From the NCBI GenBank assembly GCA_023078555.1, contig CM041201.1:7323172-7387171 (forward strand): a DNA stretch of 64,000 bases, given 5' to 3'. Below the pieces are notes generated by a model. The model saw only the letters and a list, made by a program, of their open reading frames with translations, was not told the origin of the DNA and made no database searches. Within the stretch, counting starts at the first letter, position 1; every line of letters begins with the position of its first letter. A program made the position numbers and the translations under genes. Below are positions 27,963 to 38,600 of the stretch, in pieces. Source of the stretch: Ulva prolifera (Eukaryota > Chlorophyta > Ulvophyceae > Ulvales > Ulvaceae).

Positions 27963-30900
27963 TCACAACGACCCGTCCATGAACTCTAGCGGGTCGGCCG
28001 CAAAGTTGTTCTGCCTTGCGATTTGGGCAGCCGCGCGCTGCGGCCGAGATGACCGAGGGGGCTGCTGCCCCTGTGCTCCGTGCTGCTCTGCAGCCCCACC
28101 GGCTGCCAGAGCGGACGAGCGCATGGCTTGGCGGTGGGGGGAGGAGACTCCCCGGGAGCCGGGGTAGTACGGCATGTCATGCATGCCCCGCGACTGCCGT
28201 TGCTGCCCGCTCGGCGGCCCCGCGGCCATGCCGGCCGGCTGCCCCGGCCCGCCCCGTTGCGCCCACATCGCTGACCGCATGTCCCCCCCTTGCGGCAGCT
28301 GCATGCTGTGCCGGCCCTGAGGTGGGCCGGGGCCCCGCACCAGCGGGTCCATCATCGGCCCGCCTGGCATCTCCCCTGCAAACGACGTTGCATTCACCGC
28401 ACACACTGTATACACCCGACACCACGCACTTTGAAGCCTACAGCACTGAAACGATACCACAGCATGCAGAGACGGGCTGGCCGACCACACATTGCGCCTG
28501 CTGGCATCAGCACCTGCACAGACGGAACAGAGCCACAGCCAGAGACCATCGGCCGCATGTGAGCAAGGGAGCCGGCTCGACCCTGCTACGCTCCCATAAT
28601 TTCGGATGATTTCAAATCAGCTTTGCTGTGACATGACTTGTTGTGTTGTTCACCTTACGGGAAGTGTAAGGATACTATATCGTTTACAATGATGCAGCCG
28701 GAGGGTCGCACCGTGCCGCGCAGGGTGCATCTGCGCCTGCAGCCCCGGGTCCGGCATCATGCGCGGAGCTTCACCGCCCTGGAGCGCGTACGACCGCATG
28801 CCCCGCTCCGCCGGCATCGGGCCGGAGCCCGGCCGCTGCATCGGGTGGAAGCCCGGGCTGCTGCCGCGCGACCCATGCATGTGGTATGGCGCCGGCCCGG
28901 ACGAGCGCTGCGGCTGCGCGGCCATCCACGGCGCAGCGATGTGGCTGGAGTGGCCCCCGCTCCCGGCGTACCCCCCGCTGCTCGACAGCCGCCCCCGGTC
29001 CAGGGACATGCGGTGGCTCGGCAGGGACCCCGTCGGCGATGCGAAATGCATGCCGTCCCCCGGGTATGGCGTCGGCCCCGGCTGCGACCCCGCGGCATCG
29101 AGGAGGCCCGCCGGCGACTGCGAGGGCGAGCCGAGGCTCTGGTCGAAGCTGTGCCGCCGCAGCATCGGGTCGTCGAGGAGCCTCGACCCCGCCGGCGACT
29201 GCCGGCCCTGCCGCATCTGGTGTGTCTGCGGCGACATCAGCTGCCCGGAGCTCGAGTAGCCGCCGCTGCCGGGCTGGCCGTGTGCGCTGAGGCGGAAGTC
29301 CGGCTGCCGCTCGTGCACGCCGATCGGCGGCCCCGGCCCCGGCCCGACGCCGCCCGGCGGTAGGCCCGCGAGCTGCCCCGCCGCCATGCCCCCCTGCATA
29401 CGCGCGTAGTCCCCCTGCGGCTGCTGCGCGTGCTGCTGCGGCGGCTGCCGGCTGACGTACTGCGCGCCGCCGTGGCCCATCTGGGGGGCGCCGATGGGCA
29501 CCTGGCCGCCGGAGTGGCGGCCGTGGCCCGGGTCGGGCATGCCAGAGTGCAGCTTGCCCTTCATCGCTTCGCGCTTGTGCTTCAGCATCTGGCTCATGTA
29601 GTCGATGACGCTGTTCTGGTGGTGCTGCGTGCTGAGGTAGCTGTGGAACTGCGCGAACTTCGCCGGGTCTGCGAGCGCCATCTCATACTCGTCCTTGAGG
29701 TACTTTGCGAGGCACACTTTGCGCTTCTCGCGCGTCTCCACCTGCACTCTCCAGGCCACCGTGAGCACAGCCCGCAAAGAGGCAGCTGGGGGGTGGCACG
29801 TGTCCAGAGGCCCGCACGGGGACACGAAGAGCGCGCACCTGAGCGGCGAGGTTGCGCGCAGCCTCCATGTCAAACCGCACAGCGTTCAGGAACGCGTACA
29901 CCTCCTGCTTCTCCGCGAGCTCCTTCTGCAGCGCCGCCACGTCCTCCGGCGGCTCTAACGCCGCCTCCGCGGCGGCCGGCGCATCGGCTTCGACGGCCGC
30001 GGCCGCCGGCGCCTCGCGCCGCGTCGCCTTGCCCCCGGCGCTGCGCTTGTCGCCGGTGTCTGGGGCGGCCGCGGCGCGCTGTGACGCGAGCTCCTGCTCG
30101 CGGCGCTGCGCGGCTTCGCCGTGCTGGGGGCAATACGTCTTGTACGTCGGGCGGCCTCGGCCTGTCGAGTGCTTGCACACCGCGAAGCAACCGACCTTGC
30201 GCGCGCACAGCGGGTGGAACGTGGTGTGGCACTTCGCGTGCGCGCACTTGACGGTCGCGCCAGTGCGTTGCCGGCAATACGCACACGTCATGCTGAAGCG
30301 GTCCGCGCGGATGTTGTCGACGTTATGCACCTGCACATCTGCCAGTCGCTCACAGCTGCGCAGCCCACTGCGGCGCCGTTCGACGTCGGCCGATGTAGCC
30401 TTGCACACAGCCGTTCCTCCGTGGCACCCTGGCCACAGCACGCAGCACGCACAGCCATCCCAGTCGGGGCGCGGTATGCCGGAGACACCCAAGCAAGCTG
30501 CCGAAGCATCTGCCACGCAATGCGGGACCAGTACAGCTTGCAACGCATGCATCAGCAGACGACCGCGCTTGCGGACGAACTGATGCACCCGCACACGCAT
30601 GGGCGCCGGGGGATCGCACGGCGTCTGCCACGTCCTCGTTGGCGACGGACACCTCCGGGGTCTGCCAGTGCGCGCACACGAGGTGCACCCAGCGCTCGGA
30701 GCCCACGGCCTGCTTGAAGATGCCGCGCTTGACCGGGCAGAGGCAGCACTCCGCGTCCTTCGAGCCGCCGGGGTAGTCCGGCGAGCCCTCCTGCTTGAAG
30801 CGCGGCGGCCGGATCTTGTCCTGCGGTGTGCCCTTGGCGCGCAGCTCCCCCTCATACCTGCATACCTAGCCCACACGTGAGCAATCCCGGCCGCAACAGG

Positions 30901-33900
30901 TAGATGGCCGGACGGCGCAGGCACTCATGCCGTCTCCCCACGTGTAGCTTCATGGGCAGACAACCTGCCGAAATCTACCGCAGCAACGCCTCTGTGGCGT
31001 CGCACGCGCGACCAGGGCGGCATCGAGCCCGGCATCACATGCATGGGTGGACGCGCACAGCTTGCACGGCCAGCAGAGCCACTCCCCCGCGGGGATCTCC
31101 CCGAGCCCGTAGCACTGCTGGTGCACAGCCACGTTGCAGCGGTCGCAGAACACGATCTGGTTCGCCGCGACGCTCGTGCCGTCACCGCACACCGCACACA
31201 GCGCGTTCACCACGTCCGGAGTCTCGAGCGCAAACGGATCGATCAGCTGCTCCGCGCGCAGCGGCAGCGGCACGCCAAACACGTCGTCCGGCGAGCGGTC
31301 GTCATCGTCGTCGTCTGACGAGGACGGCAGCGCGTGCTTCGCGGTCGCGCGGCGCGCGCGCGCGACCGCAACCCCGCCGTCGGCCCCGGCCTCTGCCGCC
31401 GCCTCCGCGGCCGTGGGCTCGACGGGCTCGGCCGCGGCGCGGCGCTCCGCATCGCGCTTCTCCTGCTTCGCCTGCCGCTTGAGGGCCTTCATGTGCAGGA
31501 GGAAGGCGTCGATGTCCTGCTCCGCCTGCTCGCGCTGCTGCTCCCGCACCGCCTGCTCCGCGAGCGTCGGTAGAACGGCCTCAAGCAGCCGCGCACAGCT
31601 CCGCCGATTCGCGACCGTCACCTGCCCCCCAAAGGCAAACCCCTCAGCCTGACACCTCAATGGCGCGCTGGCGTGGTCAAAGAAAGCACGCCTGTGTCGT
31701 TGGTCACGGCAGGCCTCTCACTCCCACACCTCAATGGCGCACCATAGCAGGACCAGGCGAAATGGGCGAGGCTCGTGTGATGCCGCAGCGCCACACATCG
31801 CGCACAGCAGCGGCGCTTGCTGAACACATTCGGGGGGCATGAGGTAAGTGGGAGCGAGGGGGCGAGGCGAGACGCAGAGGTTGACGGTGCCGACAAACAC
31901 ACACTGAAAGCACTGCCAAGAGGCAAGCCGCTCCACGTCAACCTGTAGCAATCACATGTGCCACCGATGCGTACCTCAACATAATATACAAACAGCTTCT
32001 CCAGCGCAACAAAGGAAGGTATGTCAATGCACACCTGCGCGAGCTCAGATTGCAGGCTGATGATTTCAGCAACGATCTCGTCCTCCGGCGCGATCGCAAG
32101 CAGGTCCGCGTTACGATTCAACAGCTCCCACTGCTCCGCCGCCTGGCACCCCGACGTCGCTTCGGGGGCCGTGTCCGGGGCATGCACAGATGCTGCACCT
32201 GACGCCGCGGGCTCCGATGCAGGGGCCCCGGACGCCGCCGCGCCGCCTCTGGCGGCAGTGTCCGCCGCGGACACCGCCACCGACCCCGCAAGTGACGCCG
32301 CTGGCGGCCCCTCCTCCTCTGTGTGGCCCCCTCCCGCGCCTTGCAAAGGCTCTGACTTTGCCGGGGCGGGTGTAGCGGCGGTGTTCATGGACGCGCGCTT
32401 GCTGGCGCGGGGCTTGAACGGCCGCCCTCGCGAGCTCGTCGCTTGCTGTTTATTCGGCCGCGCGGCCTCTGCGTCGCCGCCGGCGTCGTCCTCTATCTTA
32501 ATGCCGGCACCACTGCGGGTGGACTTCACTGGCGAACCGTGGTGGGAGGGCCGGCCGCGTTTCCGCGTGCTGCGCCGCTGCTGCATGGTGAAGCGCAGCG
32601 GCCGGTCATCCGATAGCATGCCCTTGGCATCTGCAGCTCGCCCCCACCGTCAGCTTGTCCCCCGGATGAAGCGCAAGGCACATGCTCCACCATGCAGCGT
32701 CCACATGGCAAGATCGGCTTGCATGCGTGTCGGGTTCAGGGTGCGGTCAAGAGCCCGCCCCCTGGCCGAGGCACCGCCCATGCATGCAACAGTCTGGAGA
32801 GGTGCTCCTGCCGCCCCCGTACCTGTGGCCCGGTCGTCCGCGCTGCTGCAGTCCATGGACACCTCCCCCGCAGGCGCGCACGCCGTCGCGGCCCCCGGCT
32901 GCCCATCCCGCACGGCCAGCCTGGCGCCGTCCTGCGCGTCCCCCCCCGCGAGCATTGCCGCCCCATTCTCCGCCCGCGGTTCAGCGCCGTCCTCCATGTC
33001 GTCATCGTCTGATGCCGCAGGCGCGGCGGGCTCGGGGTCTGTGCCATCGAGCGCGGGTGTGGCAGGCGGCGCGGCGGCCGCAGCGGGCCCGCGGGTGACG
33101 CCCGCGGTCGCCGGCACCGGTGACCGCCGGCGGATCGGGAGGACCGGGTCCTTCGCCACCGCATGTTTAAGGAACTCCGCCAGGTACGGGTGCACAGCCT
33201 GCAGCAGCAGCCGCTCAGCCACGCTCTGAAGAAGACACTCATCCGGTCTCAGCCGATCCGTCCGCACAACTCTGCCCCCCTGGCCACCTCCGCCGCACTG
33301 TGTGTGGTAACACGAGCGTGCAATTCAAGGCCAGGTTGGGGATGGCGGGTGCGTACCTCATCGGGTGGAACAGGAGGCTTGATCCGGGGCGGCTCTCTGC
33401 AGCCGCCCAGGTCGAGCTCCTGTGTCGTGGGCACGATCGCTGACTGCAGGTCGAGCGACGGCAGCTGCGGCAACATGCGCTCCGCGGCCGCCACGAGAGA
33501 TGCCTGCATCAGCTGCACGACAGCCTCCTGTGCCTCCTCTGCAGTGGAGACCTCCGCTGCATTGCCTGGCGACGCAGAGTCCGCTACAGCCTGGGCCTGG
33601 TCTGGTGCTGCCGATAGGTGGAAGAAACCATTCAGCGCGAGCATGTCCTGGTCGCTGACAGGCCAAGCAGCCTTGCTGCTTGAGTGCGCGGCCCCATTGG
33701 CAGCATGCGAGGCAGCACTCTGGGTGGGGGACTTTGGAGGGTCGTTGCCGGCTGGGGGAGCGTCGCCCTGGCTCATGGACCTGGCGAGCTGTGCCACAGC
33801 TTTCCGTATCCTCTCCACAATGTCAGGTGACATCGTTGACCTGCACCATGTGCGGTACTGCTGTTCATGGCTCCCAGGAGGGGCCACTGTGACACGCGGG

Positions 33901-35008
33901 ATGCGGAGAGCAACGTGCAGCTGTCGGTATGGAAATCATGAGATAAAGAATATCTCAAGCCTTCTCAGGCGATGCAAGTACTGCTATCCAGAGATAGGGC
34001 GTACGATTTGCCTGAGGCTGCGGCTGATGCCAGAGAGCTCCAGTCAGTGTCCGAGGAAGGAAACAGGGCCGCTAAAACAGAGAGCACATGGCTGATGCAT
34101 GATCCCGGGACGCTGTGGAGCAGCGTGGCACCTGCAGACGTAGGCCTGGATGATGGCTGCTCCGCTAGCTTCTCAACCTTCAGCGGTGTTCTCTTGGTCC
34201 CCGACACCTCATTTGCAGCCTGCAAGCGCAGCTGGCATCCGTGAAGGTGCAGCTGGCACTTGGTCTCGCAGGCAGCTCATAATCAGGTAACTCGCCATGC
34301 TATGACAGATGGCGTGTGTGACATACATTTCGAGCAGAGTGTGCAGGTGCTTCAGTGGCATTGCCATTGACCTGGGATTGATCTCGGCCATCCTCATCGT
34401 CCTGCCCCGAGTGGGTGGGGTTGAATCCCAAGGCCGGCATTGTAAAAGCTGGATCATCATTCAAAGATGCGAATTGCGGCAGTAGGAGCTGGATGTCGGC
34501 TGGCTGGACTGCTCTGCAGTAGTCCTGCACAAAAGCTAACAAGCTAACTCAAGAGGCTGGTAGGTACAACCTGACATATGGGCTTTTCAGCATATGACCC
34601 GCAGAGAAAAACAAACGAATTCCTTGCACACGTGAGCCGCACCTCCATGACCATCCAGTATGCTGACATTTCGGAGTCCACACCAATTCTGCTACCAGGG
34701 AAGTGCAACTGGTCAGCCTGCGCCCTTTTTCTAGCATCCTTACTAGATTTTTTTCGCTTTTCTTCCTCGCGCTTTGCAACGATTTGGAAGGCATCCTGAA
34801 ATGTGACCCCGCTTGTTGATGCCAGTGAAGTGGTCCTTCGCTCAGCTGAGACCAACGCTCTGGCGCGATCGATGATTTCGTCTGTCTTGGAGATCTCGTC
34901 AATCAAATGAGGCGGGGCACTGCCCTGCGCCATCGTCTGGCCTCTCCTCACGAGCTCATTGTGACGGGCTGTGCTCGGGGATGGTGCCAACGGGTATCGT
35001 CGCGCCAA
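27963..35008 (-). CDS. Ada3-like protein fused to a BRPF-type PHD/zinc-knuckle/extended-PHD reader
   Basis: Eleven exons join with every phase matching: 34643-35008, 34327-34524, 34005-34219, 33357-33840, 32823-33225, 32035-32630, 31059-31621, 30620-30857, 29839-30330, 28712-29741 and 27963-28375; about 1665 residues. The C-terminal half has the PZP module of BRPF/Jade/Nto1 proteins that read histone H3 tails: a PHD finger (CAVCGDG..., residues ~896-938), a zinc knuckle (CCLCPVKRGIFKQ, ~979-1010) and an extended PHD (CAYCRQRTG to YCPQH, ~1037-1091). The N-terminal half resembles the SAGA adaptor Ada3: a YWMVMEDYCRAVQ / DDPAFTMPALG segment, SVAERLLLQAVHPYL, and EDEIVAEIISLQSELAQ followed by NRR, LLEAVLP and DIDAFLLHMKALKRQ, which follows the Ada3 C-terminal pattern. 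AT-hook-like KRGRP and RGRPFKPR lie between. No bromodomain, PWWP or acetyltransferase is seen. The last 450 residues are Gln/Pro/Gly/Met-rich. A start at Met 26 (34933) is also possible. PZP is certain; the Ada3 assignment is an inference. Confidence 0.85.
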
Positions 35009-35620: not shown

Positions 35621-38600
35621 TCATCTCATGCCGAGCATTCGCCGCAAGTAGGGAGACATGAGCAGAATCAGGAACAGCCCAGCTGCCCAACTCACAATCA
35701 GCACAATGTCCCTGCGCAGGTTCCCCATGTTGATGCCCAGTGTCTCAGCAATCACTTCTCCATCAACGTTGTCCAGGGATCCGAGCGACTCGACTGAGAA
35801 GTTGAACCTTGACCCCTGCACGCAACATCCCAATTCAAATGCCTCGCTCCCTCATCCCCTCAAACGCCCACATGCTACAGAGCACCAGAAAGACATTGGA
35901 AGGCAGCAGGGCCAGTACACCAGAGAGAGGGCCACACCTTGAACTCATTCACTGCCATCGCCTCAAACGCGTAGTACACCAGCGACAGGTACTGCACCCA
36001 CGCAATCAGGTGGTGCATCGTGTCCGAGTTCACCAGGAAGCCCCCAAAGAGCATCGAGATCACGAGCACGAGCACAAACACGACCGTCGCCGTCCCGGCC
36101 CGCTTCGACCACTCCACGATCACCATCGCCTGCAGCTGCGTCGCGATCGCAAACGCCACCAGCACAAACATGAACATGAAGATCCGCGAGTCCTCCTCCC
36201 GCAGCTCCGCCATGTAGTACACCGGCAGGCCGAACAGCACTGCCGGCAGAGCGCGCAGCAGCAGCGCGTCCACGAGGGTCTTTGACACCATGTAGATGAA
36301 CGCCGGGTAGTACCCGAGCCGCACTTCCTTGCGGATGACGGTGCGCTCGTTCAGCAGCGAGTCGATGGAGGTGACGGCGAGGAGGTCAAGGAAGACGAGG
36401 GTGAAGAAGATCGCGCCAGCGCGGTTCTGCACGCCGGCGATGCCGTCCTCGAGCTTCCAGAACACGAGGCCGACAAAGATGCCGAACAGCGTCGCGACGA
36501 CGGCCGTCATGATGAGCATGCTCCAGTTACGCCACACGTCCAGCAGCGCCCGCCACACCTGCACGCGCCGCGGCCGCTCAGCACACACCGCCGCAGATGA
36601 AACAGCCCAGCGAGAGTGCTACCAGCCACACATCTCAATTGTGGAAGAGCCAGCGGTGAAAGAGACTGTGCAGCTAGCTACATCCTTGCAGCACCCCGGG
36701 CGCGCTGCGACGAAAGGACAGCAAACGCGAACAACAGCCCCGCAGCACATGTCTCGCCGCAGATACAACCCATGCAAGCTGGTCCAGAACGGAAGGCAAA
36801 ACAACACCACATCAGGCGTGCATCTCTGGAGGGGGGAGCGCACGAGGATGCCCATGCGGTAGAGGATGGGCACATTGCGGCTGCGCACGCGCTCCCGGAT
36901 CCAGCCGCTCGCCGGCTGCCCGCCGCCGAGCCCCCGGCCGTACGGCGTCGCCGCGGAGTACTCCGACACTGCCCGCAGCTGCGTCGGCTCATTCACGAGC
37001 TGCAGCAGGAAGTCCGCCATCGGCACCTCGGGCCCGCGCATCACCCCTGCGCGCCCGAGCACGCCCTCCAGCTCCGCTGCCGGCCCGCTGAACACCGCAC
37101 GGCCGTTGTGCAGCAGCAGCAGGCGGTCCATCTGCGCGAAGATCGCCTGCGACGGCTGGTGGATGCTCGCGATCATGATCCGGCTGTGCTCCACGGCGAT
37201 GGACTTGACCATGGACGTGAGGCGGTGGGCGGTGTACGAGTCGAGGCCAGAGGTGACTTCGTCCATGAGGAGCATGTCGGGGCGCGCGCAGAGCTCGAGG
37301 GCGATGGAGACGCGCCGCCGCTCGCCGCCGGACACGCCGACGATGCCGGAGGAGCCGCCGACCATGCGGTGTGCGCAGCCTGCACCGCGGCCGCCACTGA
37401 CAGCGTGGACGGGAGTGTGTGTATACAGAGTTCTCACATGGAGCTGTGTTTGTTTGCGACATGCCAGAACCTGTCATCCGCGTTCTGAAGCTCACCATGC
37501 TCATATACGAGACTTCCAAACCCCAACAGCTCAGGCCATTGCATGACAGGCTACAGAGAGATTCAACACTGCAAGTACAGTATTCTGTTTGACAAGGGCT
37601 GAACAAACGAGAAGGCAGAGCGGTGGCGAACCGAGGAGGCCGAGGTCCTTAAGCAGCGCATACACAAACGTGCCCGCGTCGTCGATCTCCTTGCCCTTCA
37701 CATACTCCCGGAACATCATGCCGAGCAGCACCGTCTCGGTGACCGTCAGCGTCGGCATGAGGCAGTCGTGCTGTTGGACGAAGCCGAGCGTCGCCTTGCG
37801 GCCCTTGCTCCCGGCCACCGCGGCCGTCGGCGCGAGCTGCATGATGTCGAAGCCTGTCATCGGCGTCGGGTGCGGGTTCGGGAGGCTGTCCTTGCTCGCC
37901 TCGGGGGTGACAGCATGTGCGTCGACGATGTCGTCGGCCCACGTCACGCCGACGCGGCCGCGGGGCGCCGCCTTCTTCGGCAGCAGCTGCGGCTGCTGCG
38001 AGAGGATCGCCAGCAGACTACTCTTCCCTGCAACAGATTGCGATGCGGCGCGTGAGCGAACCAGGGCGCTGCTCACGCGTTATGGGATCAGTCATGGCGA
38101 CTCGCTGCAAGAGCGACGCAGGCCTGGTGCTTTGCACGCGGAGGTCGCTGAAGCTGTGCAGAGGCTCTCCAGACAGGACGGTCGTTTCGGACCAGAGCCG
38201 TGCTCGCATGCAAGGAGGGCAGAATGGAGTGGCAAGGAGACGGCACGCACCGGCTCCACTGGGCCCCATGATCGCGAGAATCTCTCCCGCCTGGACCATC
38301 CCACTCACATCCTGCAGAATGTGCGCCCTGCATGTACACACACCTCGTCACGCATGCCGCGCATGCAACACCGCTCCTCATGCACACCACAACCGCAGAA
38401 GGGCGTACTTTGCTTTGCCTTTGCCGACCGGCGCCGCCATCTCCGGCACCTTTGCGGCTCGGATCGCGTCCGACGTCCCGCCGGAGCTGCCGCTCAGGTC
38501 CCGCACCGGCAGCTGGTACTGCGCGCCGCCGTTCTGCACAAGCAGCGGCGACGGCGGGTCTGGTGGCGTGCCGTTGTGCTCTGACGACACCTGCAGGCTG

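What the first reader, a model, noticed from the sequence alone, without database searches (positions are those of the whole stretch)
27963..35008. Fusion of an Ada3-like SAGA adaptor with a BRPF-type PZP histone reader
Ada3 belongs to GCN5/SAGA complexes, while PHD-knuckle-extended-PHD modules normally sit in BRPF/Jade/Nto1 scaffolds of MYST complexes. Here the Ada3-like N-terminal motifs and C-terminal coiled segment (EDEIVAEIISLQSELAQ...DIDAFLLHMKALKRQ) precede a complete PZP module in one 11-exon frame whose phases all match. If real, one protein would couple a GCN5-type adaptor to an H3-tail reader.
Basis: partly seen in the sequence, partly recalled or inferred. Interest (0 to 1): 0.75.

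Follow-up and report, generated by a model that had tools for sequence, protein, structure and literature searches.

The report
Green algal ADA3 fused to PZP reader
A seaweed gene joins the GCN5 partner ADA3 to a histone-tail reader of the BRPF/JADE type in one protein, and the same joint protein is found in many green algae and land plants, although ADA3 had been reported missing from green algae of the chlorophyte group.

Summary
One minus-strand gene (34933..27963, 11 exons, 1631 aa) encodes two ADA3 blocks, then a complete PZP module and a long helix. Pfam Ada3 (PF10198) scores 35.0 bits, cut-off 24.5. A profile of the N-terminal block has yeast and Chaetomium Ada3 as its two best PDB hits; that of the C-terminal block has Chaetomium Ada3 first. 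The gene aligns end to end, 71% identical, with an independent model labelled Ulvmu1. It is no oddity of this alga: 96 of 134 proteins carry both ADA3 blocks with an extended PHD, including named chlorophytes, mosses and angiosperms; of 114 further PZP proteins 3 (land plants) carry both and 111 neither, though one of the 111 gives a doubtful hit by profile comparison. Published surveys report ADA3 missing from chlorophytes (PMC8071052, PMC7915528); here it is, fused. Most likely role: scaffold tying GCN5-ADA2 to the H3 tail and to ING-EAF6, as in the plant PAGA complex; identity with PAGA subunit SPC is a recalled lead, not shown. No transcript or binding data were available.

The parts
34643..34933 (-). 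exon 1 (start codon at 34933), aa 1-97
   Evidence: collinear with P0001
34327..34524 (-). exon 2, aa 98-163
34005..34219 (-). exon 3, aa 164-234
33357..33840 (-). exon 4; acceptor 33840 gives ...GKS|STMSPD as in P0001 ...SKSSTLAPD
32823..33198 (-). exon 5; acceptor 33198 supported by P0001 (DE|AVHPYLAEF vs DETVHPYLAEF), instead of 33225
32035..32630 (-). exon 6
31059..31621 (-). exon 7
30620..30857 (-). exon 8; donor at 30620 supported by P0001 (EDVADA|VHNVD vs EDVAEAVHGID)
29839..30330 (-). exon 9
28712..29741 (-). exon 10
27963..28375 (-). exon 11 with stop codon
34408..34750 (-). ADA3 N-terminal block (AdaN, aa 62-136; intron 34525-34642 inside), motif AYWMVMEDYCR...DDPAFTMPALG
   Evidence: profile A1 finds yeast Ada3 (4.3e-5) and ctAda3 (6.5e-4) first in the PDB
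31439..32151 (-). ADA3 C-terminal block (AdaC, PF10198, aa 682-781; intron 31622-32034 inside)
   Evidence: PF10198; profile A2 finds ctAda3 first, 1.8e-4
30118..31231 (-). PZP module: PHD finger, zinc knuckle, extended PHD (aa 851-1058; two introns inside)
29664..29955 (-). long helix after the PZP (aa 1113-1177; intron 29742-29838 inside), candidate ING/EAF6-docking helix
   Evidence: profile A3 best PDB hits EPC1 228-272, E about 0.1; helix 672-742 in the model of P0105

Best explanation
The gene encodes a green algal ADA3, carried as the N-terminal part of a PZP scaffold protein. Shown here: one gene model, collinear with an independent one; two ADA3-homologous blocks in ADA3 order; a complete PZP; a long helix after it; the same layout in many green algae and land plants. 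Inferred: the ADA3 blocks seat GCN5 and ADA2 (exons of both are in this genome), the PZP holds the N-terminus of histone H3 and nearby DNA as in BRPF1, and the helix carries ING and EAF6. One chain would thus take the GCN5 acetyltransferase to the H3 tail, in the way Nto1/BRPF takes a MYST enzyme there. It is probably the algal counterpart of the scaffold of the plant PAGA complex, and in chlorophytes, where no separate ADA3 has been reported, perhaps the only ADA3.
For: PF10198 35.0 bits (cut-off 24.5), PHD and zf-HC5HC2H over cut-off in one frame. AdaN profile: yeast Ada3 349-412 and ctAda3 305-370 are the two best of 177,635 PDB sequences. AdaC profile: ctAda3 571-659 best, yeast Ada3 565-649 fourth (E 0.87); same order as here. 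Collinear with P0001 at 71%; AdaN 88%, AdaC 85%, PZP 86%, first linker 60%. Both blocks with an extended PHD in 96 of 134 proteins. Five AdaC residues (P, E, E, Q, L) and PZP cysteines and histidines invariant over 35 proteins. Control: 111 of 114 further PZP proteins have neither block at E<=10. GCN5 HAT exons with bromodomain exons 0.8 kb downstream; ADA2-like ZZ followed by SANT-like residues. BRPF1 PZP binds H3 and DNA (PMC4705663, passages, abstract included); Nto1's C-terminal helix bundles with Yng1 and Eaf6 (PMC12789522, passages); plant ING1 binds SPC in PAGA (PMC11960017, passage).
Against: No transcript, proteomic or binding data. Of 20 family members scanned whole, 6 pass the PF10198 cut-off, 4 hit below it and 10 do not hit. 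Single sequences did not find Ada3 in the PDB convincingly. The helix match to EPC1 is weak. EAF6 and ING gave only sub-threshold hits in this genome. That SPC is this protein is recalled, not shown. MYST genes are present too, so a MYST partner is possible. The control is redundant (largely AF10/AF17 orthologues), and P0136, one of its 111 negatives, gives a doubtful AdaN by profile comparison (52%).
Confidence: 0.74

Rival explanations
1. A BRPF/JADE/Nto1-type scaffold of a MYST acetyltransferase whose ADA3-like blocks are inherited decoration; it serves MYST, not GCN5.
For: PZP closest to BRPF1, JADE1 and NTO1; helix like EPC1 (weak); MYST genes in the genome; of three loci with a PZP match over the cut-off the two others look ATX-type by eye, so no other BRPF-like gene was seen.
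Against: No EPL1-like domain, which Nto1 has beside its PZP (PMC12789522, passage), was found in the protein; both ADA3 blocks are among the slowest-changing parts, like the PZP, and are kept in chlorophytes and angiosperms.
Confidence: 0.13
2. Two neighbouring genes, an ADA3 and a PZP gene, joined by a wrong exon chain.
For: The model is mine; no cDNA was available; the splice sites had to be chosen among alternatives.
Against: P0001 keeps the joint end to end, and 95 of the 133 other proteins have both blocks and an extended PHD in one chain.
Confidence: 0.03
3. The ADA3 likeness is a coiled-coil coincidence and the N-terminal half is an unrelated green-lineage domain.
For: AdaC is one long helix; many members fall below the Pfam cut-off; yeast Ada3 matches AdaC only at E 0.87.
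Against: AdaN, a separate block of different composition, independently finds Ada3 first; order is kept; 11 of 14 AdaC segments hit PF10198 at E<=1.
Confidence: 0.05

Closest known systems
Ada3/Ngg1/TADA3 (PF10198), HAT module of SAGA-type complexes
   Same: Both Ada3 blocks in the same order; PF10198 over its cut-off
   Different: Canonical Ada3 is not known to me to carry a PZP or an ING/EAF6-type helix (recalled)
BRPF1-3, JADE, Nto1 scaffolds of MYST complexes
   Different: EPL1-like domain not found; no bromodomain or PWWP in the Pfam scan; ADA3 blocks instead
Plant PAGA complex (GCN5, ADA2A, ING1, SPC)
   Same: A GCN5 complex with an ING subunit that binds SPC (PMC12579105 and PMC11960017, passages)
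   Different: The sequence of SPC was not available; identity is a recalled lead; most land plant relatives seen have an extra extended PHD between the ADA3 blocks, this one has not
Plasmodium GCN5-ADA2 complex with PfPHD1 and PfPHD2
   Same: GCN5 and ADA2 with large proteins carrying four PHD fingers each, some extended, and no ADA3 named among the subunits (PMC8396726, section 6 part 1)
   Different: Whether PfPHD1/2 contain ADA3 blocks was not tested

Membership tests
Ada3 | PF10198 domain over curated cut-off | tested here: met
   35.0 bits, cut-off 24.5
Ada3 | N-terminal conserved block upstream of PF10198 | tested here: met
   profile A1 best PDB hits yeast Ada3 and ctAda3
Ada3 | Binds Ada2 and Gcn5 | not testable with these tools
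   GCN5 and ADA2-like exons exist in the genome
BRPF/JADE/Nto1 | PZP module | tested here: met
   fold of relative P0105
BRPF/JADE/Nto1 | EPL1-like N-terminal domain (PF10513) | tested here: not met
   absent from the Pfam scan of the whole protein at E<=5, (a very divergent copy could be missed)
BRPF/JADE/Nto1 | C-terminal helix for ING and EAF6 | tested here: inconclusive
   EPC1 best hit but E about 0.1; fold match to NTO1 reaches over the helix with rmsd 20.9
PAGA subunit SPC | Orthology to Arabidopsis SPC | not testable with these tools
   PAGA paper not held; ING1-SPC binding passage

The most novel reading that the evidence does not exclude
The ADA3-PZP scaffold is older than green plants: an early eukaryote GCN5 complex was built on it, and the plant PAGA complex and the Plasmodium GCN5-ADA2-PHD1/PHD2 complex descend from it. 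Chlorophytes kept it as their only ADA3; animals and fungi have the parts apart. Support: P0116, labelled Rmarinus (Rhodelphis marinus as I read it), has PF10198 over cut-off plus two PZPs; unnamed P0040 and P0014 carry AdaN between or after PZPs (profile probability 94% and 88%), P0013 and P0136 perhaps (56%, 52%). Against: oomycete and other stramenopile proteins were indecisive (at most 21.5%), and PfPHD1/2 were not tested.
Probability: 0.3. Interest if true: 0.82.

Novelty: new variant of a known kind. Interest (0 to 1): 0.62.

Why it matters
One paper states that ADA3 is absent only in chlorophytes (PMC8071052, passage), another did not detect it in about 20 chlorophyte genomes and read its presence in charophytes as the first complete GCN5 module of plants (PMC7915528, passages). 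The gene here, and counterparts in named chlorophytes such as Raphidocelis subcapitata (PF10198 over cut-off) and Chlamydomonas eustigma (PF10198 below cut-off, found by my profiles, of which it was a seed), show an ADA3 homologue fused to a PZP reader. It suggests how GCN5 and MYST-type complexes exchange subunits, offers a reason why a plant GCN5 complex contains ING, and makes a direct prediction for divergent GCN5 complexes of other lineages. Some relatives carry names such as Peregrin, Jade-1 or PHD finger family protein, which hide this.

Tried and rejected
Own-genome search with PF10198 found nothing, not even this gene, whose domain is split by an intron; it therefore says nothing on a second ADA3. 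A protein query of the two blocks found only this gene, which would miss a divergent paralogue. EPL1 and SGF29 searches of the genome found nothing and had no working positive control. A regex for the post-PZP helix hit 1 of the 28 proteins tried and was dropped. A regex for both ADA3 motifs was run on 131 proteins without a strong AdaC hit; it was printed only for proteins with both motifs (none) and for 14 chosen ones, where it gave an AdaC-like match in P0040 and an AdaN-like match in P0111. Profile comparison of inter-PZP regions of oomycete and stramenopile proteins was indecisive (at most 21.5%). VIA-align rows outside the PZP are not evidence; no ADA3 chain is among the rows shown. NCBIfam gave no hit for P0001 and P0105. 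Paper searches for a printed account of an ADA3-PHD or ADA3-PZP fusion found none in the listings; the library lacks most subscription papers, including the PAGA paper.

Full report
What is there. The minus strand from 34933 to 27963 carries 11 exons that join with GT/AG introns and matching phases into a 1631-residue frame. My first model (1636 aa) was corrected at two splice sites by comparison with P0001, a 1646-residue protein labelled jgi/Ulvmu1 UM005_0199.1 (Ulva mutabilis, as I read the label), found by database search. The two align end to end, 1134 of 1598 aligned positions identical (71%); AdaN is 88%, AdaC 85%, PZP 86%, the first linker 60%. The window lies in an unnamed 88.9 Mb genome; the similarity to Ulvmu1 suggests an Ulva or close relative (inference).

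ADA3. An alignment of 14 green-lineage N-terminal blocks (A1) searched against 177,635 PDB sequences has yeast Ada3 (6tbm_B 349-412, 4.3e-5) and Chaetomium Ada3 (9ynv_O 305-370, 6.5e-4) as best hits; the next is a calpain at 0.1. An alignment of 14 C-terminal blocks (A2) has Chaetomium Ada3 571-659 first (1.8e-4); yeast Ada3 565-649 comes fourth at 0.87. Single sequences did not find Ada3 convincingly, so the claim rests on profiles and Pfam. PF10198 passes its cut-off in 6 of 20 family members scanned whole (window, P0001, P0009, P0033, P0044, P0116), hits below it in 4, and not at all in 10; of 14 excised segments 11 match at E<=1.

How widespread. I built HMMs of AdaN (14 seeds) and AdaC (17 seeds) and an extended-PHD model, and scanned the 133 proteins then in hand plus the window protein (ADA3 blocks at E<0.01, extended PHD at E<1e-5). 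Of 134: 76 read AdaN-ePHD-AdaC-ePHD, 19 AdaN-AdaC-ePHD (including the window), 1 AdaN-AdaC-ePHD-ePHD, so 96 have both ADA3 blocks; 15 read ePHD-AdaC-ePHD, 3 AdaC-ePHD, 1 AdaC-ePHD-ePHD; the other 19 lack AdaC (2 of them, P0014 and P0040, have AdaN). The set came from searches with family members, so these are not frequencies, and seeds are counted among the hits. Named members include Raphidocelis, Chlamydomonas eustigma, Symbiochloris, Micractinium, Volvox, Gonium, Pedinophyceae, Klebsormidium, Selaginella, Sphagnum, Ceratodon, Physcomitrium, Adiantum, Amborella and other angiosperms; Ostreobium P0010 has AdaC and ePHD but no AdaN, its model being short. As control, 114 further PZP proteins, largely animal AF10/AF17 with some BRPF and fungal ones, were scanned: 3 (Pterospermum and two Salix) have both blocks, 111 have neither at E<=10. 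That control is redundant, and one of the 111, P0136, gives AdaN at 52% by profile comparison. A tree of 35 members, with P0001 standing for the window, puts P0001 with Ostreobium P0010 and the unnamed P0011 (support 0.88), and groups land plants with Klebsormidium (1.00) and the unnamed prasinophyte-like proteins (1.00, the label being my inference); Raphidocelis falls outside the other chlorophyceans with middling support, so the fit to the species tree is good but not perfect. The form with two extended PHDs is the commoner one here and occurs in land plants, Klebsormidium and the pedinophyte, so the single PZP of this gene is probably a loss (inference).

Partners in the genome. GCN5: HAT matches at C4:4989988-4990840 with bromodomain matches at C4:4991638-4992563. 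ADA2: a ZZ match at C4:6006907 followed by SANT-like residues, read by eye. EAF6: best 23.8 bits against a cut-off of 25; ING: best 18.5 against 23.9. MYST: two loci and a third with an in-frame stop. Three loci carry a PZP match over the cut-off, with weaker ones elsewhere; the two others look like trithorax/ATX genes from SET-like residues seen by eye, while Pfam on the exons tried found PHD and a sub-threshold SAND but no SET.

Literature. PMC8071052 (passages) states that ADA3 is absent only in chlorophytes. PMC7915528 (passages) reports ADA3 undetected in about 20 chlorophyte genomes, using Arabidopsis proteins as queries, and reads its presence in charophytes as the first complete HAT module. 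The present gene and its chlorophyte relatives speak against the absence. PMC8396726 (passages; section 6 part 1) describes a Plasmodium GCN5-ADA2 complex with PfPHD1 and PfPHD2, each with four PHD fingers, some extended. PMC12579105 and PMC11960017 (passages) describe plant PAGA with ING1, and ING1 binding to SPC. The PAGA paper itself is not held; that SPC is the land-plant member of this family is a lead from recall.

Mechanism. Shown: the fused, conserved architecture. Inferred from relatives: ADA3 blocks hold GCN5-ADA2; the PZP grips the H3 N-terminus and DNA, as BRPF1 PZP does (PMC4705663, passages, abstract included); the helix may dock ING-EAF6. The protein would then do for GCN5 what Nto1 or BRPF does for MYST enzymes.

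Noticed in passing
P0013 (unnamed source, 1987 aa): Pfam shows a partial bromodomain, two PZPs and a weak GNAT acetyltransferase match (E 0.056) at 885-922; an ADA3-like stretch (PPPLGTHYRVRWAREDAPLL) lies between the first PZP and the GNAT match. Possibly scaffold and enzyme in one chain.
   Followed up: partly
P0040 (unnamed source, 1513 aa): Four PZPs, an AdaN block, an AdaC-like motif and an MSL3-type chromodomain in one protein.
   Followed up: partly
C-termini of P0002, P0004, P0009, P0036, P0039, P0088, P0100, P0105: A motif like MTxxEAxxxNxxLPxGYxYVP lies near the end of family members from algae to angiosperms; the window protein and P0001 lack it and end in RSSRPQRAAAQIARQNNFAADPL and a few more residues. 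Function unknown.
   Followed up: no
G000:C1:1608590-1609150: A third MYST-like locus with an in-frame stop, nearly the same in part as the copy at C1:6175649; looks like a decayed duplicate.
   Followed up: no
window 35875-37473 minus: Neighbouring gene upstream: ABC-2 type membrane domain (2.6e-38) and an ABC ATPase fragment just under its cut-off; looks like an ABCG-type transporter.
   Followed up: partly
L021, L022: The two other loci with a PZP match over the cut-off appear to be trithorax/ATX-type by SET-like residues seen by eye; SET was not confirmed by Pfam on the exons tried.
   Followed up: partly
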